The notes beneath the pieces were generated by a model. That model worked only from the letters and a program-made list of their open reading frames with translations, was not told the origin of the DNA and made no database searches. The position numbers and the translations under genes are program-made. From positions 21,448-53,914 of the forward strand of contig NZ_KN882186.1 in assembly GCF_000934755.1 (NCBI RefSeq): a stretch of DNA of 32,467 bases. Reading direction: 5' to 3'. The stretch comes from Desulfonatronovibrio magnus. GTDB lineage: Bacteria; Desulfobacterota; Desulfovibrionia; Desulfovibrionales; Desulfonatronovibrionaceae. Of the stretch, positions 1 to 28,626 are shown piece by piece (the first letter of the stretch is position 1; every line of letters begins with the position of its first letter).

Positions 1-85
1 CCGAGTCCCCGAGTCCCCGAGTCCCCGCGTCACTCTTCATCCGAGTCTCCGAGTCTCCAAGTCCCCGAGTCCCCGCGTCACTCTC
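1..85. repeat. Heptamer-like tandem repeat tract (GAGTCCC units)
   Basis: The first 85 bases are built from short degenerate units of the type CCGAGTC / CCCGAGT, with two longer sub-blocks ending in CCCGCGTCACTCT. The tract reaches the last codons of the methyltransferase on the minus strand (stop at 78-80). It may continue to the left of the window. A related degenerate 7-bp tract lies inside the same gene at 3256-3371. Confidence 0.7.
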
Positions 86-3000
86 CCCCCCCGTCCCTCG
101 TCACCGCCTGATCATACCACATGAGCAGTTTGGGATCTTCTTCAAGAATTTTATTGGGTATTTTTTCAGCAATGGTGATTATTGTTGAGTAGTCACGCTG
201 TTGCCAGGCTTTTTTGAATCCCGCCCGGACTGCTTCCAGTCGGAAAACCTTGAGCTTCTTCTTAGCCTGCTTGTATTGCTCAAACTCTTTGAGCAGAACC
301 TTGTCCCGCATCTTTTCCAGATCACCTGCCTTTCTTGGATCAGGCACATACCAGCGGTCTTTGGCCTTGGATTTCAAAACTGGATCATCCTTATCCATAT
401 TTCTAAGCTCAGGCCAGTTGGTTGAAAGATAGCTGTGAATCTGGCTGGGTACGGCTTCTTTGCCATCATAACAGAGAAAATTCTGATTAAGCAGTTCTCG
501 CAGATCAAGTGGGGCTTCATTCTTTTTCCAGCCGCCAAGCTGCTTCATGAATTGGGGATTGATGTCAGAAAAGGTTTGAGGCTTTTTTCTTAATAGGTAG
601 CGCAGCCACTGAATGGCAGAGTTTTCATCAAACACAGCCATATAGAGCTGTACTTCCTTACCTGACATCATTTTCTTGCGGTCATACTCATTGGTCTGTT
701 CCGGCAAAAAGTACATGCCATCCCGTTCGCTGAAACGCTGGGCCAGACCTTCCTGAAATTCCTGGCTGGATATTGGTACTGGATAGCCTTTACGAACATA
801 ATAGGCCACCATCTGATCAAAAAGAATACGTGGATCTCGCTCAGGAATTACTTGAGGGACACCGGCCTGGTTTTTGGTTACAGGCAGGTATTTGAGATGA
901 GTACGAACAAACTCCCACACCCCTTCTTCAGATTGGACTGATTGCAGGAAACGCTTTTCAAAACCGCCGTTGGGTTTGTAGGCTGAGATGACAAGGTCTT
1001 GTTTGACGGAGGTTGTATTTGTGACTGCATTAAAGCTTCCCTGCTTTTTATTTAGCGCAGAGACATTAGCAACGATAAATCCAGCCTCAGTAAGGGCTGT
1101 TTGGATGCTGTTCCAGACAGACGCTTTGGTGTTAGAAAACTCAACAGTCATCCACCTGCCAGGCTTTAATAGTCTGTACGCTTCAGAGAAGCATTTGGTC
1201 ATAATATCCCTGTACTCAGCACCCCCTTTGCCTTGACTCTTGTTTTCGATTGCTTCCGGTTCAATATTAGTCTTGACTCCCAACCAAGACTCCCAAAGAA
1301 AGCTAAGCTCAGAATAATTAAGATTCGAACCAAAAGGGGGATCTATAAATATATAATCAAGGCACTCATCATCGGCATGAAAATTTGAGGATGAACTGAT
1401 AGATAAAATAAAATCTTTCGTAAAATGACAATTAGCCTCAAATATCCTCCCAAGTCGGCTTTGCCCCCTTTTGTAAGATGAAGACGCACTCAATCCTCTA
1501 ATCAATGACGGCACATAAAGAGTCCCTGTTAAAATGCCACCACCTTGACCTTTATAATTCGGTTTTTTAACGTTGTACCTGTACAGCTTACTTATCGTAT
1601 TGATCATTGAAAAAGGCACAAGATAACGATAATCAAGACGCTTACATTTCTCTCGAAATGCCGAAAGCCATCCAAGACCTGATGCGCTATAAAAATGATG
1701 GGCATGTGTTATCCCTATCCTCAACGGCTCGCCAGTTTTATCACCTTCAGATATGGGATCAGTAGGATACCAATAGGGAATTTCACTGTTTTCAATTTTT
1801 TCAATCAATCCCAGGTCAAAAATATCCGGTTTCTTTTCATATCTTTTTCCCCTGGCTTGATAAGTGGAGCCTGCTTCCAGCAGGCTTTTTCCTGACTGGA
1901 TGCTGCTGGCAGCAGAAATATTTGAAGATTTGTCAGAAAGCCTGCTGGAAGCAGGCTCCACTATAGAGGCAGGAATCAAGGAATAATTTATAAGTACAGG
2001 AACCTGTTTGGCATGTCTAATGGTTTGCTTTATAGCCTGATCATATTTGGACACCCAGGCTCGCTCCATTGTCCTCTTGGTGAGAGTCGCCTGACATTTA
2101 CTACAGGGAAAAGAATCCCTGACCTTGCCAGCTTTCTTATCTACTGCAGCTTCCCAGAAGATCACTTCTTGTGAACACTCAGGACAAATAAAGACATCAG
2201 ACCAGACCGTGTAGTTTATCTTTCCAAGTGGAGCCGGCTTCCAGCCGGCTTTATTAAGACTTCCAGCTACATAACTGTAAGGATATCCATCTCCAGAAAC
2301 AATTCCAGCTCTATAAGGATTCAAGTAAATATAAGTAAGGATAGCGCTCAATTCATCTGCATCCCTGACTATTCGATCATAATATTCTGTCTGCCAAACT
2401 TTAGAACCTGGTGATTCATCAAGTTTATTGATTTCATTTGCAGAATAACTTTTAATACTGTGAATAATTTCTTCTAATTTCCAGCATTCACCTTCATCAT
2501 TCTTAGGTAAAGGTTTGGCAAGTAGATGAACATGGTCGGGCATTACTACTGCAGAAAAAATTCTCCAACGTTGTTTATCCCAGTACAGTAAGGAATCAAG
2601 GAGCTTTTGACGAGCAGCTTTTGACAGCTTACGATTATTGTGTGTTCTGAATGTAATAAAATAAGTTGCCTGTTTGACCTCTATATGCGGTAAGTTGTCT
2701 TTGCGGTAAGATGCATCAGTTACTTCAAATGGATTACAGCCTTGGAATTCCAAAGCCTGTAAAAGCCTGCTGGAAGCAGGCTCCACGTGAAGAGTCTCAT
2801 ACATCCACCCACACTCTTCCTCTACTTCCTTTAATATCCTTTTGGCCTCTTTTTCAAAGGCTTTGACATCAACAGGTGTATTGTAATTGTAGGCAATAAA
2901 AGTAGCAGCTGGGGACAGATCATTAAGCACAGCTTTTCTGGCTCCAAGTTTTGAGAAAGGGTTCAAAACCTTTTTGCCGGTTTCATCTGTTTCTTCCTGC

Positions 3001-3686
3001 AAAATGGTTCCATCTTTTTCCACCCGGTAACCAAGAGACATGACTGTATCCCGATCACCACACATCTGGGCGGCCACACCCGTCATTCCCGTACCACAGA
3101 ACCCGTCAAACACGATATCTCCAGGTTCTGTATAGTGCAGGATATAGCGCATGATGGCTTTGTGTGGAACCTTGGTGTGATAAGAATGGGCATTATAGAT
3201 GGGGTCATTTTTACCTTCGCTGACATCGGCTGCAAAAGGCTCACGGTGGTATGGTGGGTCCAGGGTCTCTGGTCCAGGGTCTAAGGTCGAGTCACCCCCA
3301 CCCCCGGAACCTTGAACTTCAGACTCTTGACTTTGGACTTTAGACTTTGGACCTTGGACCTTGGACTTCAGTCTCTTCTTCTCCTCTTCCCACTCAGCAA
3401 TAAAATCAGCAATCCAAGGATTGGGGCAGGCAGTGTAATACGGAGGGTCAGACAGGGCCAGGATATCTTCATCCTCTCCTATGGGAAAGCCTTCAATTTT
3501 TCTGAACTCCGGATCTTTTAGCTTTTCCCGCAACAGTTTAGTGAAATATTTCCTGCGCTCATCATCACTTTCAAAGGTAATGCCCAGGCAGGTAACTGGT
3601 TTTGGTTCTTCCTTTTCCTCAGGCTCAACACCCCATTCAAGTTTCTTCTCAACATAAGTTCTGCCTGATTTTTTTGCCTGCTTCAC
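78..3686 (-). CDS. pglX: BREX adenine-specific DNA methyltransferase PglX, with three in-frame repeat/transposase insertions
   Basis: Predicted N6-adenine methyltransferase that marks host DNA in a BREX anti-phage system (COG1743-like, with a zinc ribbon). The start chosen is GTG at 3686, preceded by GGAGG with a 7-base gap; this gives 1202 residues. An upstream in-frame TTG at 3716 lacks such a site. Visible motifs are DPPY at about 80-83, the SAM-binding FDGFCGTG at 193-200, CPEC/CSKC zinc-ribbon pairs at 501-504 and 528-531, and a second DPPF at 782-785. Three segments look foreign to the family: a heptamer-repeat linker at about 106-144, a whole RAYT transposase between REP palindromes at about 301-487, and a REP pair at about 576-608. 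All stay in frame. The gene follows a small antitoxin-like gene by a few tens of bases and is probably in the brxF-brxC operon. Activity with these insertions is uncertain. Confidence 0.85.
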   Translation of the reverse strand: MKQAKKSGRTYVEKKLEWGVEPEEKEEPKPVTCLGITFESDDERRKYFTKLLREKLKDPEFRKIEGFPIGEDEDILALSDPPYYTACPNPWIADFIAEWEEEKKRLKSKVQGPKSKVQSQESEVQGSGGGGDSTLDPGPETLDPPYHREPFAADVSEGKNDPIYNAHSYHTKVPHKAIMRYILHYTEPGDIVFDGFCGTGMTGVAAQMCGDRDTVMSLGYRVEKDGTILQEETDETGKKVLNPFSKLGARKAVLNDLSPAATFIAYNYNTPVDVKAFEKEAKRILKEVEEECGWMYETLHVEPASSRLLQALEFQGCNPFEVTDASYRKDNLPHIEVKQATYFITFRTHNNRKLSKAARQKLLDSLLYWDKQRWRIFSAVVMPDHVHLLAKPLPKNDEGECWKLEEIIHSIKSYSANEINKLDESPGSKVWQTEYYDRIVRDADELSAILTYIYLNPYRAGIVSGDGYPYSYVAGSLNKAGWKPAPLGKINYTVWSDVFICPECSQEVIFWEAAVDKKAGKVRDSFPCSKCQATLTKRTMERAWVSKYDQAIKQTIRHAKQVPVLINYSLIPASIVEPASSRLSDKSSNISAASSIQSGKSLLEAGSTYQARGKRYEKKPDIFDLGLIEKIENSEIPYWYPTDPISEGDKTGEPLRIGITHAHHFYSASGLGWLSAFREKCKRLDYRYLVPFSMINTISKLYRYNVKKPNYKGQGGGILTGTLYVPSLIRGLSASSSYKRGQSRLGRIFEANCHFTKDFILSISSSSNFHADDECLDYIFIDPPFGSNLNYSELSFLWESWLGVKTNIEPEAIENKSQGKGGAEYRDIMTKCFSEAYRLLKPGRWMTVEFSNTKASVWNSIQTALTEAGFIVANVSALNKKQGSFNAVTNTTSVKQDLVISAYKPNGGFEKRFLQSVQSEEGVWEFVRTHLKYLPVTKNQAGVPQVIPERDPRILFDQMVAYYVRKGYPVPISSQEFQEGLAQRFSERDGMYFLPEQTNEYDRKKMMSGKEVQLYMAVFDENSAIQWLRYLLRKKPQTFSDINPQFMKQLGGWKKNEAPLDLRELLNQNFLCYDGKEAVPSQIHSYLSTNWPELRNMDKDDPVLKSKAKDRWYVPDPRKAGDLEKMRDKVLLKEFEQYKQAKKKLKVFRLEAVRAGFKKAWQQRDYSTIITIAEKIPNKILEEDPKLLMWYDQAVTRDGGGE
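1864..1961. repeat. REP pair (BIME) inside pglX, in frame
   Basis: GTGGAGCCTGCTTCCAGCAG at 1864 is mirrored by its inverted copy ending at 1961, with about 48 bases between them. Each half has a GTGG tetranucleotide followed by a palindrome, the layout of REP sequences handled by RAYT transposases. It is read through as peptide (VEPASSRL ... LLEAGST) between the conserved-looking NYSL and RYEKKPD stretches of the methyltransferase. Confidence 0.85.
2228..2786 (-). mobile_element. REP-RAYT-REP unit (REP-associated tyrosine transposase) inserted in pglX
   Basis: A Y1/HUH single-strand transposase domain (RAYT, TnpA-REP type) nested within the pglX reading frame and bounded by inverted REP palindromes at 2761-2786 and 2228-2252. 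Family motifs in order (pglX numbering): LPHIE with ATYFITF near 335-346, the metal-binding HVH at 385-387, and the region around the likely catalytic tyrosine, TYIYLNPYRAG, from 451. The length between REPs fits a complete small RAYT. It has no clear start codon or stop codon of its own, so it would be made only as an internal domain of PglX unless an internal start is used. The REPs match pairs at 1864, 4265 and 28569, so this is a plausible source transposase for them. Confidence 0.88.
3256..3371. repeat. Degenerate heptamer tract inside pglX
   Basis: About 115 bases made of units like GGTCCAG, GGACTTT and GTCTAAG, with a short run of C between two blocks. On the coding strand it reads as a low-complexity linker with peptides such as KSKVQGPKSKVQSQ and STLDPGPETLDP between AEWEEEKKRL and YHREPFAAD. 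A small fragment of the same kind is at about 4529-4553. It is a repeat expansion tolerated in frame. Confidence 0.7.
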
Positions 3687-3723
3687 CTGTAATCCTCCAG
3701 AGTGTTTATTTTTCAAGCCAGTT

Positions 3724-4264: not shown

Positions 4265-4320
4265 GTGGAGGCGGCTTCCAGCCGCCTGGAATTTAATAGC
4301 CTGCAGGATGCAGGCTCCAC
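4265..4320. repeat. REP pair (BIME), intergenic
   Basis: GTGGAGGCGGCTTCCAGCCG faces AGCCTGCAGGATGCAGGCTC, giving the same GTGG-palindrome ... palindrome-CCAC layout as the REPs around the RAYT domain in pglX. The stems differ in sequence (GGCGGCT and GCCTGCA), as expected for a diverged family that preserves structure. Confidence 0.8.
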
Positions 4321-4579: not shown

Positions 4580-7500
4580 TCATTCCAAAACAATCCTAAC
4601 CTTGGCCTGATCCTTTCCTCTGGACAGGCTGTCCACATATTCGCTTATGGCCCGCTTGAATTCATCCGGAGTGGATGGGCCAAGCTTTGCTGCAAGGTCA
4701 ATCAAGTCAGATTTTTTAACAGGCACTTTCTGAAGCCCGGCAAGCACTGTCTTGATTATCTGCACAAAATTACTGTCTAAGGGCTCAGGCAGTGTGCCTG
4801 ACTCAACAAAAGACTCTATAACCTTTCTTTCCTCATCATGGAGAAGTTCAGTCATGTTGGCCCTGGTAATTGGGTCTTCAAGGTTATTCAGTATTGTCCT
4901 GGTCCAGCTTTCCACAATCTGGTCCAGCTCATCATCCATGCGGTCAAGAATATCAGGATCAGCAATACCTGTGCTTTGTCCGGAATGAACAGCTTCAGAA
5001 GCAGGCTTGAAACTGCAGTGCGGACATACAGGGTAAGATACAAGTTCGCTTTCAGTCAAAGCAAAACAGGATTTCAAAGAAGCCAGACGATTCTGGAAAT
5101 CAACAAGCTGCTGAGTGGGCATAAGGTCTATGGCAGCGAGTTTCTGGAGAACCTTCAGGCGCGGATCAACAGATAAAGCGCTTTTTTGTTTGTCCTGTCT
5201 GCTTCCGAGCCTGGCCCTGGTGTGCAAAGACATATATTTTGTCAGATAATCTTTTTTCAGACTATGAAGTCTTTGTCCAATGGTGGGCAGTGCGTTTTGT
5301 TGTCCATTAAGGAAAGATTGTATTTCTTCAATTAAATCCTTTTTAAACCTATGCATTTCTCCAATCCATGGATCATCTGCCTGTAAAACTGCTTCTGCAG
5401 TGGAGAACCAGGCAGCTTCCTGACCGTGATCTTTGACAAAATCACTGACTCTTTGCAGTTGATCCAGTGACTTGAGAGCAGATGCCTGGGCTTTGACCTC
5501 ATCAGAGGAATAACGGAAATTTTTCAGCCTGCCCGGGGTGGAGTAAGGCTGGAGTGACTCGAAAAATTCCTTGGATTTTGTCAGCTCATCCGCCTGACTG
5601 GAAAGATGGGTATCCGCCAGCAGATCCACGCCCCAGAAATTAAGACCCTGCCTGAGCATCTGCTGCATAAGCACGATTCTTTTAACTATCTTGTCAACTT
5701 CCTGCTGCATGGTGCGGACCGGTTCATCCTGGCCCTGAATGGCCAGTTGGGCCAGGCCGGGGCTCAGTCCCAACAACTCAAACAGAGTCTTTATTGCCGG
5801 AAGGTTTGGTTCCTTAGGTTTGTTTATATGTCTGAACTTTGCCAGCTCATCCATATCCAGGGCAGCCATCTGACCAAGACCTGTAGCATCGAATTTTCTG
5901 CCCTGGATGGATATTTCAATATTGCCTGAATAAACCAGTGCCGCCAGAATGACCATTACCAGTTCCGGTTCAAGTCTCATATTTCCCGGATTCATATATT
6001 CCAGGCCATAAACATCGGAGATTAACTCCCCCCGGTTAACCACCTGTCCCTGTCCTTTGGCATCCAGTATCTCCTGAATAAACCGGGCATATCTTGATTC
6101 AGAAGGATCAATCCTGCTGTCTTTCAGAAGCTCTAAGGCATCCAGAACAGCTGTTGCCTGTTTGGTCATAGTTTGGCCGCCAATGGCTCTAAGGGCTTCT
6201 CTGGCTGCCTGGGGCAGATTTTCCCGGGTAATGATTATCTGAAAAAAAGGATACTCAGGGGCCTGGTTCTCAAAATTCGGGGCCAGGCAAATAGCAGATA
6301 CTGTATTGACCAGGTCACGCAGGTTAATGGTTTCAGAAGGGGCTATGCCGGATAAATCCCGAATGGATTTGCCTTTGGCCCACTCGGTCATGGATTTTGA
6401 CCGTCCCTGATAAGTAACCTCAAAGGCTTTGGTCATGTTTTTCTGCAGCCATTGGACCAGGGCCTTAAGATAAGTTCCTGCTTTGGATTCATATGTTGAC
6501 TTGGCCTGCCCGGATGATACGAGACTCAGATCAACAGCTGCCGCGTAGTATCTCAAGGCTGTCTGGAATTCATCATCTATACCTTTAAGCCTGAAGAAAA
6601 CCTCATCGCTGTGTTTCTCATCCTTAAATCTGGGGGGATCAAAAGGCTGGATAAAATATATATAATAATCTCTCTGAGGGACTGCTGTAGAACGCTCATT
6701 GGGAGCTCCAAAAAAGAGATATCCGGACCTGCCGACATTTCGTTCCAGCCAGACCAGCTCATGCTGCCATATCTGGTAGCCGGTAACATAGGTTTTATCC
6801 TGGCATTCCATGACCCTTTTCAGAGCTTCATAATAAAACCTGTCTAACTGGGAATCGTCAAAAGTTTCAGCCTTGGTTCTTATTTTTTCATCATAATCAA
6901 TATCCTTGCTGATATCGAGGTAAAACTGACCGCTCAGTTTGCCCTTTGCATTGATTTCCGTGGCTGAAATAAACTGGCCGCTCACAGCCTGGCTGATAAG
7001 GCGGATAGCGGTTTCTATTTCACCTCGCAGATCTTCAGATGGATCATCCCCGCCAAGTTCTGCAATCAATGGATCAAACAGGCACAAGGAATCCCGCAGT
7101 GCCTCAGCAGTTAAGCCATTGGGAGATGACAGGCTGCCCACTGTAAGCCGGTGAACACTAAGGGCCTGGACAATTCGCAGCGCAAAATCCTTGTTTTTGG
7201 CTCTTGAATAATTTGAATTCACCAGATCCTGTAACGTGGCGCTGCAGTCAATGACTTTCTTGACCTCAGGCAGCATCTTAAAGGCCGGATTTGTAGAAAG
7301 AACTTTCCAGTAACTGTCAAAGGCCAGAAGCCCAGGTCTGTCTTTGGGCACATCCTGATCCATGATATCTTTCATGGCCGATGAAAGAGTCCTTAAGGCC
7401 TCTCGCTTTTCAACAACTGTAATTCTTTCAAAGGTATCAATATATTCAGGGTGGACTGGAAAAAGACGGACAAAGTCATCCATTCTCTCGTTCATGCTCC

Positions 7501-8344
7501 CGTAGAACCTGGCAAAAGCGGTCAGGTATTCCCTGATTCTGGTTTTCTGTTCGGCAGTTTTCCTGAGCAGACGCTCGGCAACAACAAACTTGACGTCACT
7601 GCGGGCTATGTGAATTTCCACAAAACGGTCTTTGACCCGGCGAATGCTCTCAGCCACAAAAGCAAACCTGGGGCTGTCAAAAATAGCTTCCTGGATGCCC
7701 GCCATAAACCTGAAGCGAAGATCTCTGCATACCTCGCCCACCTCCCGGAGAAAATTAAGATCCCTGATCAGCTCAAGTTCGTTGCGGCCTCTCAAATAAT
7801 CCAGGAGCTCGTCAACAACCAAAAGCAAACCCTGGTCAGGATAAGCCTGTCCGAATTTATCCATTAGATCTTCAAATACTTTCTTGTGGCCGGTGATCGT
7901 GGATGGGTCCGGAAATACAAACTCCACGCCGAACTTTTCCAGGTTCTCCTCAAGTACTGAAACCAGGATATCACGCAAAGACATGGTGCTTGCTCCGATT
8001 TCAGCACGGATGACTTTAAACTTCCCGGCAATTTTAGATGCTTCTTCCCGGACCTGGGAGTGATTCAAACTGTCTACTACAGAAGCATCTTCGGCAATGC
8101 CTGAAATGACTGACATGAGATGAGATTTACCGGTTCCATAATTGCCCACCACCAGCAGACCTTTGTTATCTGCAGGGATCTCAAACTGCAGGTGTTGTAT
8201 GGCAACTTTGACTAAGCGCTCTGCCATTTCATCCGAAATGACAAATGTGTTCACCAGACGTCTGGCTTCATCTGACCGGTCGGCGTGGCGAAGCTGGACC
8301 ACGGTTTCAATGGGATCAAACTGAATAAGATCTGAGTACTTCAT
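4580..8344 (-). CDS. brxC: BREX ATPase BrxC/PglY-like (DUF6079)
   Basis: A 1254-residue P-loop ATPase, the large core ATPase of BREX systems, expected to work with PglX and PglZ in methylation and phage exclusion. Walker A is GNYGTGKS at 67-74 and Walker B is LLLVVDE at 173-179. An AAA-type region follows ([14 protein letters not shown], then [14 protein letters not shown]). The rest is a long helical protein, with a CPHC pair in the last 200 residues. The N-terminus ([20 protein letters not shown]) is typical of the family. The ribosome site upstream is weak, and a MITE lies directly 5' of the gene, so its expression may now depend on or be reduced by that element. A repeat cluster of about 600 bases separates it from the next gene. 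Confidence 0.85.
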
Positions 8345-16308: not shown

Positions 16309-17703
16309 TCAAGACTGTTGTCTGGAGCGACCATCCTGTTCAGGAAGCGTAATATTTAATTCTTTGATCTTTCTGAACAGTGTGCTTTTATGGATGCCAA
16401 GCTCTCTGGCAGCTGCCTGGCGATTAAAGTTATTTCTTTCAATGGCGTCATAAATTGCCCTGGCTTCAATATTTTGCCTGGCCATTTTTATATCCGTCCC
16501 GACTGATAAACGGTCCATACCGATAATTTCCGGTGGCAGATGCTTGATGGTGATTTCACTGTCAGCACAAAGAATAAACGCCCTTTCAACTGCGTTCTCA
16601 AGCTCCCTGATATTCCCAGGCCAGTCATGTGCCATGAGCAGGGATAACGCCTGGACATCCATTCCAGGGACCTTTCTGTTCTGAATTCTGTTGAATTTTT
16701 GGATGAAGTTATCCACAAGCAGAGCTATATCTTCCTTACGCTTTCGCAGAGGTGGAATTTCCACCCTGACCACATTTATTCTATAATATAAATCCTGTCG
16801 AAAAACCTTATCCTCAACAAGCTTTTCCATGTCCCTGTTGGTTGCAGCAATTATCCTGGCCTCAAGCCTTTCAGGTTTGACAGACCCAAGAGGTTCAAAG
16901 GTCTTTTCCTGCAGAACCCTGAGCAGCCGGACCTGCATGGCCGGACTGATTTCACCCATTTCATCTAAAAAAATAGTGCCCTTTCCAACCAGAGAAAAAC
17001 GCCCGGGCTTGTCCTTGACAGCACCCGTAAAAGCACCGCTCTTGTATCCAAAAAGCTCCGACTCTAACAAAGTATCAGGAAGAGCACCACAGTTCACAGC
17101 CACAAAAGGCTCATCTGCTCTGGGACTCAGGGAATGAATAGTCCTGGCTAAAAGCTCCTTGCCTGTTCCGGTTTCTCCAAGAATAAGCACTGTACTTGGG
17201 CTTTCCGCCACTGCGGGCATAATCTCAAAGATGGCCTCCATGAGCGGACTTCGGCTTACAAGATCACCCATTCTGAATTTGCCTTCCAGCTCCTTTCTGA
17301 GGCCTTCCACCTCACTTAAGTCACGAAAGGTCTCAGCCCCGCCAATAATTTTTCCATTTTCATCACGGAGCACAGCAGTAGAAACACTTATGGGGATACG
17401 GCTGCCCTGGGCATTGATAATAAATCCGGAACGGTTGATTATTGGCCTGCCGGTTCCCATTGTTTTTTCCAGAGCACACCCTGTCTCGCACATGCTGGAC
17501 CGAAACACTTCGCAGCATTGCCTGCCCAGGGCCTCTTTTCTAAGTATTCCGGTTATTTCTTCTGCAGCCCTGTTGAATGAAGTAATCTTCCATGACCTGT
17601 CCACAGTGAATACGCCATCCGAAATACTCTCCAGGATTGCCTGAGTTCCACTTTGCAAGCCATGAGCAATGTCTGGCTCTGAGTAATAGTTTTTATCTTT
17701 CAT
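16309..17703 (-). CDS. Sigma-54-dependent activator with Cys-containing PAS domain
   Basis: A 464-residue enhancer-binding protein. The N-terminal PAS domain (about 22-130) has clustered cysteines, C63, C64, C72 and C76 (CCEVF ... CETGC), which could sense redox or bind a cofactor. The AAA+ domain has Walker A GETGTGKE at 176-183 and the sigma-54 contact loop GAFTGA at 223-228. The C-terminus is a Fis-type helix-turn-helix (RQAAARELGIHKSTLFRKIK). It lies upstream of the ORP-like genes in the same direction, as a sigma-54 regulator accompanies the orp operons of D. vulgaris, so it is the likely activator of the promoter at 16166. Confidence 0.9.
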   Translation of the reverse strand: MKDKNYYSEPDIAHGLQSGTQAILESISDGVFTVDRSWKITSFNRAAEEITGILRKEALGRQCCEVFRSSMCETGCALEKTMGTGRPIINRSGFIINAQGSRIPISVSTAVLRDENGKIIGGAETFRDLSEVEGLRKELEGKFRMGDLVSRSPLMEAIFEIMPAVAESPSTVLILGETGTGKELLARTIHSLSPRADEPFVAVNCGALPDTLLESELFGYKSGAFTGAVKDKPGRFSLVGKGTIFLDEMGEISPAMQVRLLRVLQEKTFEPLGSVKPERLEARIIAATNRDMEKLVEDKVFRQDLYYRINVVRVEIPPLRKRKEDIALLVDNFIQKFNRIQNRKVPGMDVQALSLLMAHDWPGNIRELENAVERAFILCADSEITIKHLPPEIIGMDRLSVGTDIKMARQNIEARAIYDAIERNNFNRQAAARELGIHKSTLFRKIKELNITLPEQDGRSRQQS

Positions 17704-28568: not shown

Positions 28569-28626
28569 GTGGGGCCTGCTTCCAGCAGGCCTTCTTTAAA
28601 AACAGCCGGCATCCTGCCGGCTCCAC
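28569..28626. repeat. REP pair (BIME), intergenic
   Basis: GTGGGGCCTGCTTCCAGCAG and AGCCGGCATCCTGCCGGCTC, ending CCAC, in inverted orientation with 10-15 bases between. Same GTGG-palindrome design as the copies at 1864, 2228/2761 and 4265. Confidence 0.82.

What the first reader, a model, noticed from the sequence alone, without database searches (positions are those of the whole stretch)
2228..2786. A complete RAYT transposase unit is read in frame inside the BREX methyltransferase
Seen: a REP palindrome, a full Y1/HUH domain (HVH, TYIYLNPYRAG) and an inverted REP lie between methyltransferase segments, with no stop codon in about 187 codons and the frame restored on both sides. Known: RAYTs are normally stand-alone genes flanked by REPs. 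Inference: either the transposase is domesticated as a PglX domain, or the insertion is a tolerated loop, or the gene is decaying without frame loss. A phage-defence methyltransferase that carries a single-strand DNA transposase domain would be unusual.
Basis: partly seen in the sequence, partly recalled or inferred. Interest (0 to 1): 0.85.

Follow-up and report, generated by a model that had tools for sequence, protein, structure and literature searches.

The report
Transposase riding inside a defence methyltransferase
A complete small transposase sits, read in frame, inside a phage-defence enzyme, and the same kind of insertion turns up at the same spot in related defence enzymes and in frame inside other genes, even essential ones, in distant bacteria, which suggests a mobile element that lives as part of its host's proteins.

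Summary
Window 2228-2786 (minus strand, 559 nt) is REP - RAYT (REP-associated tyrosine transposase) - inverted REP, read without a stop inside the 1212-aa PglX of a type III BREX locus with all its core genes. The HUH motif and conserved tyrosine are intact.
It is neither unique nor ancestral. Three other PglX proteins carry a RAYT at the same site; 73 of 77 PglX genes scanned do not. The PglX backbone tree needs four separate gains and rejects one, while three of the four RAYTs form a clade: the cassette moved sideways into one site.
All four carrier genes hold further in-frame REPs resembling their RAYT's own (any REP in 1 of 73 non-carriers), so it was probably active there.
In four phylum searches 73 of 308 RAYT hits (four being these PglX) lie in frames of 450 aa or more; a control transposase in one phylum gives 1 of 128 (RAYT there 39 of 134). 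Hosts include alanyl- and leucyl-tRNA synthetases, six of them the genome's only copy found and uninterrupted.
Best reading: a stop-less REPtron persisting as a translated insertion domain in permissive loops. In-frame REPs in genes were known; my searches listed no report of whole RAYTs. That hosts still work is inferred.

The parts
78..3716 (-). pglX (PglXI) ORF of type III BREX, 1212 aa, carrying the insertions
   Evidence: PDLC02541, 1402 bits
2228..2786 (-). REP-RAYT-REP unit (REPtron), 559 nt, read in frame
2265..2687 (-). RAYT HUH/Y1 core (ORF residues 344-484) with HVH and the conserved first Y of YIYLNP
2764..2786 (-). 5' REP in coding sense, GTGGAGCCTGCTTCCAGCAGGCT, reads VEPASSRL
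2228..2250 (+). 3' REP, inverted (GTGGAGCCGGCTTCCAGCCGGCT on +), reads AGWKPAP in coding sense
1864..1961 (-). second in-frame insertion: inverted REP pair, both REPs identical to the RAYT's 5' REP
3255..3372 (-). in-frame repeat-like stretch (KSKVQGPKSKVQSQESEV...) in another variable PglX loop; edges approximate
4580..8344 (-). brxC
   Evidence: PDLC02482, 1815 bits
8548..9012 (-). brxF
   Evidence: BREX_3_BrxF, 190.7 bits against cut-off 50

Best explanation
A REPtron (REP - RAYT - REP) without its own stop codon occupies a permissive loop of PglX and is translated as an insertion domain of that protein. SHOWN: open frame, intact conserved catalytic-type residues, REPs at both edges, the same site occupied in four PglX backbones that gained it separately, related RAYTs in three of them, further REPs resembling the RAYT's own elsewhere in each carrier gene, and RAYTs in frame in many unrelated genes including the only alaS or leuS found in some genomes. 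INFERRED: host proteins stay functional with the insertion; the RAYT acts on single-stranded REP DNA while tethered to its host protein, because no stop lies between it and the pglX stop, so no free RAYT is expected without proteolysis; elements that break the host frame are lost and in-frame, stop-less ones survive and spread, either by RAYT-driven insertion or by recombination between conserved flanks.
For: Same site in L031, L032 and L151/L292. PglX tree of 27 rows: 4 gains forced by starred branches, one clade rejected (p-AU 6e-11), window+L032 rejected (4e-4). RAYT tree: window+L032+L151 supported (99/88), four-way clade not rejected (p 0.485). Unit length 559 nt and the same junction position in window and L032; 561 nt in L031. 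Extra REPs in 4 of 4 carrier genes; any REP in 1 of 73 non-carriers; 0.004 per gene expected in codon shuffles. RAYT hits in ORFs of 450 aa or more: 39 of 134, 20 of 92, 9 of 48 and 5 of 34 (counted in 93; they include the window, L031, L032's genome and L151) against 1 of 128 for PF01527 (IS3-type orfA, name recalled) in the same 240 genomes as the 39 of 134 (Fisher 5e-12). 49 of 50 two-sided hosts scanned match another Pfam family; for 18 the output shows host-family matches on both sides of the RAYT. The only alaS found carries it uninterrupted in 4 of 6 genomes, the only full-length leuS match in 2 of 2. The stand-alone label clusters on the RAYT tree: 20 changes against 47 in shuffles. 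BREX III core gene set complete.
Against: All inference from sequence; no protein or activity data. L031 and L032 are MAGs; the genomes reached by the genome search are unnamed. L151 was found with the RAYT as query, so 4 of 77 overstates the rate among PglX; (query with the RAYT in it) 2 of 79 loci have one. The embedded set was chosen by frame length; 15 of 72 have under 80 aa on one side and a few host frames may be spurious (L274, L329). In G869 alaS is frameshifted and in G1073 split over contigs. Models are modest (PglX pTM 0.49; RAYT alone mean pLDDT 51). The RAYT's exact REP type was found only in pglX; the 259 other pattern matches in the genome are related but differ by 1-2 bases. 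In L031 and L032 some of the extra REPs resemble but do not equal the RAYT's own. Not every pair suggests lateral movement: RAYT core and host are about equally diverged in window/L032 (59/59%), in two of three alaS pairs (57/57, 58/59) and in priA (60/60), and the RAYT is more diverged than the host in leuS (53/86), NUDIX (53/69) and one FabA-like pair (72/78).
Confidence: 0.72

Rival explanations
1. Domestication: PglX recruited the RAYT as a useful DNA-binding or nicking domain of the BREX methyltransferase.
For: Conserved HUH and Tyr kept; RAYT core dN/dS 0.10-0.26 in the 8 of 19 embedded pairs where dS could be estimated, near saturation; four separate gains at one site.
Against: 73 of 77 PglX genes scanned lack it; the same kind of cassette sits in AlaRS, LeuRS, RecG, PriA and others where no shared function is apparent; low dN/dS is expected for any RAYT kept as a mobile enzyme.
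Confidence: 0.12
2. Decay: the insertion inactivated PglX and the frame survives by chance or because the event is recent.
For: Three in-frame repeat-type insertions in one gene; defence genes are often lost (general knowledge).
Against: No stop in 1212 codons, methylase match kept, BREX III core set complete; the RAYT is 40% different from its nearest in-PglX relative found, so the cassette is not a fresh copy of that one; four lineages keep the frame.
Confidence: 0.08
3. Same-site reuse is only recombination between pglX genes (cassette carried between conserved flanks), with no RAYT-driven targeting. Not exclusive of the best explanation.
For: Window and L032 share unit length and junction position; the 20 residues before the insert are identical and 19 of 20 after it.
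Against: That stretch is conserved in PglX generally; L031 differs in REP type, unit length and left junction; same-site pairs, judged by eye from the flanks, also occur in Eco57I-type, DUF1156, FabA-like and AlaRS hosts.
Confidence: 0.4
4. Assembly or binning artefact.
For: Draft genomes; an N run lies downstream of pglX.
Against: Four PglX carriers in separate genomes; other hosts lie on contigs of 1.9 and 2.2 Mb (L277, L338); REP edges and an open frame in each PglX carrier (the left edge of L151/L292 lies at its contig start).
Confidence: 0.02

Closest known systems
REPtrons / RAYT (TnpA-REP; e.g. E. coli TnpA-REP, PDB 4er8)
   Same: HUH/Y1 enzyme flanked by two inverted GT(A/G)G-headed REPs; 4er8 is the only PDB match of the profile at E up to 0.01 and the top fold match of a low-confidence model
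   Different: PMC2817692 (abstract and passages seen) describes RAYTs as ORFs flanked by two inverted REPs. Here there is no own stop codon and the RAYT is translated as an insertion domain of another protein
Intragenic in-frame REPs and Rickettsia palindromic elements (PMC3733652: sections 15 and 16, part 1 of 17, and passages seen)
   Same: In-frame insertion in coding genes, often DNA-repair and also tRNA-related genes, with loops suggested as sites
   Different: REP-encoded stretches of 20-30 aa, up to 82; the parts read describe no whole RAYT inside a gene
Inteins and homing elements (recalled)
   Same: In-frame coding insertion at conserved sites, same-site reuse across lineages
   Different: No Hint or splicing domain found by Pfam; the insert apparently stays in the protein (inferred)
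Type III BREX PglXI
   Same: Family match, operon partners, methylase match
   Different: About 190-aa insert at one loop and further REP inserts; 73 of 77 PglX genes scanned lack the RAYT

Membership tests
RAYT / REPtron | HUH motif and catalytic tyrosine of the Y1 family | tested here: met
   HVH and the first Y of YIYLNP are invariant in A1, 5 sequences, and align to 4er8 H-M-H and Y115; that Y115 is the catalytic one is recalled
RAYT / REPtron | Curated RAYT family model over cut-off | tested here: met
   NF047646 88 bits, cut-off 80
RAYT / REPtron | Two inverted REPs with GT(A/G)G head at the edges | tested here: met
   head definition from PMC2817692 passage
RAYT / REPtron | Stand-alone gene with its own stop | tested here: not met
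   No stop through the 3' REP; 37 of the 46 stand-alone RAYTs printed stop 3-15 aa after the core
RAYT / REPtron | High-copy cognate REPs in the genome | tested here: inconclusive
   263 pattern matches within 2 mismatches, but only 4 of the exact type, all in pglX; none of the 9 other Y1 loci of the genome has such REPs in its ~1.9-3.4 kb locus at up to 4 mismatches
Type III BREX | brxF, brxC, pglXI, brxH, pglZ, brxA together | tested here: met
   an AriAB/HEC-01-like pair lies between pglX and brxH
Type III BREX | BREX methylation and phage restriction | not testable with these tools
   needs a methylome and a phage assay
Intein | Hint/splicing domain | tested here: not met
   no such Pfam match in the ORF at E up to 0.01
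Domesticated PglX domain (ancestral) | Present across PglX homologs by descent | tested here: not met
   4 of 77 PglX genes scanned, 4 separate gains

The most novel reading that the evidence does not exclude
A class of homing-like coding transposons: stop-less RAYT lineages that have given up stand-alone genes, are expressed only as insertion domains of host proteins (defence methyltransferases, tRNA synthetases, helicases), spread between diverged genes into the same conserved loop sites, seed REPs in cis, and may still run the genome's REP population. In this genome the pglX-borne RAYT is the only one of the ten Y1 loci found that has GTGGAG-type REPs beside it.
Probability: 0.45. Interest if true: 0.92.

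Novelty: new variant of a known kind. Interest (0 to 1): 0.82.

Why it matters
A transposase translated inside essential enzymes and defence methyltransferases would be a way for a bacterial mobile element to live in genes without splicing or breaking them. It makes testable how RAYTs persist at low copy number, an open question in that field (my judgement), and it warns that long Y1 proteins, set aside as fusions or annotation errors in a published survey (PMC6006769, passage), may be real biology. For BREX it marks a loop of PglX that accepts a whole domain.

Tried and rejected
Ancestral domain: rejected (73 of 77 PglX genes scanned without it). A single fusion event inherited by all: rejected on the backbone; for the RAYTs themselves one clade of the four is not rejected (p 0.485), one clade of the 14 embedded in that tree is (p 2e-4). 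The clade test on the full PglX tree did not finish; a chosen 27-row subset was used instead. Phages and plasmids: no match to the RAYT. Codon-based selection: dS saturated in 11 of 19 pairs and near saturation in the other 8, so only indicative; a twentieth pair (L299/L300) did not align over the RAYT. RAYT-only structure poor. One long frame, L143, was set aside by eye as a spurious frame beside hsdM. G765 (two stops inside) was dropped before fetching hosts. A general count of RAYTs that break genes out of frame was not made, so the in-frame excess rests on the PglX carriers (four, one of them found by RAYT search) and on the control. Whether stand-alone RAYTs stop before their 3' REP was not checked. 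Of 72 hosts, 60 were scanned with Pfam, the window's; 11 one-sided ones were not scanned. L339 matched only Y1_Tnp in Pfam and is called DUF1156-type by eye. Among the 79 PglX loci one search also flagged L094 (in frame, same site, another repeat), L107 (with stops), and frame changes in L038 and L106; it cannot see inserts bridged inside one alignment.

Full report
OBSERVATION. The minus-strand ORF 78-3716 (1212 aa) is PglX of a type III BREX system. Its neighbours are brxC and brxF in the window; brxH, pglZ and brxA lie further along the same contig, outside the window. An AriAB/HEC-01-like pair and a short N run lie between pglX and brxH. At 2228-2786 the ORF reads through REP - RAYT - inverted REP, 559 nt, without a stop. 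The RAYT passes its curated model; the sole PDB match of its profile at E up to 0.01 is E. coli TnpA-REP, 4er8, also the top fold match of a low-confidence model. HVH and the first tyrosine of YIYLNP are invariant in five embedded RAYTs. In the same ORF an inverted REP pair lies in frame at 1864-1961 and repeat-like sequence at about 3255-3372.

SITE. In related PglX without insert the loop reads WMYETLHTDGKTKGKINYTVW or close to it; the cassette replaces the TDGKTK part. The loop is variable: in 77 PglX the median length is 10 aa, 18 have 20 aa or more, and L094 holds a different in-frame repeat there. In the predicted structure (pTM 0.49) it lies between a helix (model residues 254-276) and a strand next to four conserved cysteines (a zinc ribbon by my reading), with edges of pLDDT under 50 (model number = ORF residue minus 30).

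RECURRENCE IN PGLX. Among 79 PglX loci from the genome collection (the query held the RAYT) a RAYT is found in two, L031 (Chlorobiaceae MAG) and L032 (Deltaproteobacteria MAG), both in frame at the same site. A further carrier, L151/L292, came from a search with the RAYT; its contig begins at the 5' REP region. On a 27-row PglX tree the four carriers need four changes, forced by starred branches; one clade is rejected (p-AU 6e-11), as are window+L032 (4e-4) and L292+L032 (2e-4). The 77-row tree forces three changes for three carriers. On the RAYT tree window, L032 and L151 form a supported clade and L031 is unresolved; one clade of the four is not rejected. So the RAYT reached the site separately on different backbones, in three cases from related RAYTs. 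Window and L032 share unit length and junction positions, L031 differs: recombination may have carried the first two, L031 looks like another event.

CIS REPs. A scan for GT(A/G)G-headed perfect hairpins finds REPs beyond the RAYT edges in all four carrier genes and any REP in 1 of 73 non-carriers (L064); codon shuffles give 0.004 per gene (L073 dropped as identical to L122). In the window and L292 the extra REPs are of the RAYT's own type; in L031 and L032 they resemble it. In this genome the RAYT's exact REP type occurs four times, all in pglX, among 263 pattern matches within 2 mismatches. None of the other nine Y1 loci of the genome has GTGGAG REPs nearby at up to 4 mismatches, so the pglX RAYT is the best, though imperfect, candidate partner of that population.

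BEYOND PGLX. RAYT hits in ORFs of 450 aa or more: 9 of 48 in 395 genomes of the window's phylum, 5 of 34 in 296 (phylum of L031), 20 of 92 in 246 (phylum of the Phycisphaerae locus L104), 39 of 134 in 240 (phylum of the Verrucomicrobia locus L046); counts. The first two include the window, L031, L151 and a genome that by its coordinates is L032's. E-value limits were 1e-15 and 1e-10 in 41 and 42; where a genome gave many candidates only part of them was scored. Control: PF01527 (IS3-type orfA) in the same 240 genomes, at 1e-8, 1 of 128 (Fisher 5e-12; the control holds many identical copies and a shorter domain). After dropping one hit with stops, 69 hosts were fetched; with window, L031 and L032 that makes 72, of which 57 have at least 80 aa on both sides. 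Of 50 such hosts scanned match a non-RAYT Pfam family. For 18 the output shows host-family matches on both sides of the RAYT (one, L284, under the curated cut-off on one side); for five more (L307, L314, L317, L322, L326) there is a second stretch whose place is not shown or a weak second-side match. Ten more sequences were scanned. Hosts include AlaRS (6), LeuRS (3), another class I tRNA synthetase, PriA (2), RecG (3), PurH, exonuclease VII, FabA-like enzymes (4), HypF, MetH, glycosyltransferases (3), a type I R subunit, Eco57I/MmeI-type methylases and DUF1156 methylases. Some of these (L273, L295, L341) have a short or contig-cut side.

FUNCTION OF HOSTS. The only alaS found carries the RAYT in all six genomes searched; the frame is uninterrupted in four, split over contigs in G1073 and frameshifted in G869. 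In two of two genomes the only full-length leuS match carries it; weaker partial matches elsewhere are probably other class I synthetases. In the AlaRS of L294 the insert lies between conserved blocks that align to human AlaRS on both sides (human by my reading of the 'cytoplasmic' chain). Since these enzymes are essential (general knowledge), the hosts very likely tolerate the insert. That is the basis for inferring the same for PglX.

LIFESTYLE. Of 46 stand-alone RAYTs printed, 37 end 3-15 aa after the core and nine 16-30; embedded ones have no stop there. On a 148-row RAYT tree (87 stand-alone, 61 embedded; few columns, many weak forks) the stand-alone label needs 20 changes against 47 in shuffles, so embedded RAYTs cluster in lineages, sometimes mixing host genes (AlaRS with FabA-like; radical SAM with HypF). 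RAYT cores have dN/dS 0.10-0.26 in the 8 pairs where dS is not saturated. In six same-host pairs of DNA methylases the RAYT core is more alike than the host (77 against 53%, 72/57, 70/39, 75/62, 63/51, 62/47), a seventh is about equal (63/60); but in leuS it is less alike (53/86), as in NUDIX (53/69) and one FabA-like pair (72/78), and in window/L032 equal (59/59) (core against whole host, so only a rough comparison).

KNOWN AND NEW. In-frame REPs in genes, including tRNA synthetase and repair genes, are published, with loops suggested as sites (PMC3733652, sections 15, 16 and part 1 of 17 read). A survey of Y1 proteins set aside a few long ones as fusions or annotation errors (PMC6006769, passages). 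PMC2817692 (abstract and passages) describes RAYTs as ORFs always flanked by two inverted REPs. Seven searches of the open PMC library listed no paper whose title or abstract start reports whole RAYTs in frame in host genes; subscription papers are not covered, and the other listed papers were seen as listings only.

VERDICT. Real and recurrent: an in-frame, stop-less REPtron as an insertion domain. Activity, host function and the route between genes remain to be shown.

Noticed in passing
window 1-100 and L342:18680-19040: Minisatellite-like 'ccgagtccc' repeats at the 3' side of pglX, with an N run in the contig
   Followed up: no
window 3255-3372: Repeat-like sequence read in frame in another variable PglX loop; similar stretches in L109 and L095 (same loop) and L103 (another loop)
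   Followed up: partly
L342:16245-18279: AriAB/HEC-01-like gene pair nested between pglX and brxH of the BREX locus
   Followed up: partly
window 16309-17703: RtcR/PspF-like AAA regulator matching PADLOC CARF_AAA_HTH models
   Followed up: no
window 4265-4320 and 28569-28626: REP pairs outside the larger ORFs (pglX/brxC gap and near 28.6 kb)
   Followed up: partly
L094 about 2873-3273: A different repeat (VIARSAAPALSEAEGKQS...) sits in frame at the same PglX loop
   Followed up: partly
L107 6386-9129: PglX broken by an unrelated insertion with stop codons
   Followed up: no
G869:C30 about 27574: RAYT-bearing alaS with an apparent frameshift between its halves
   Followed up: no
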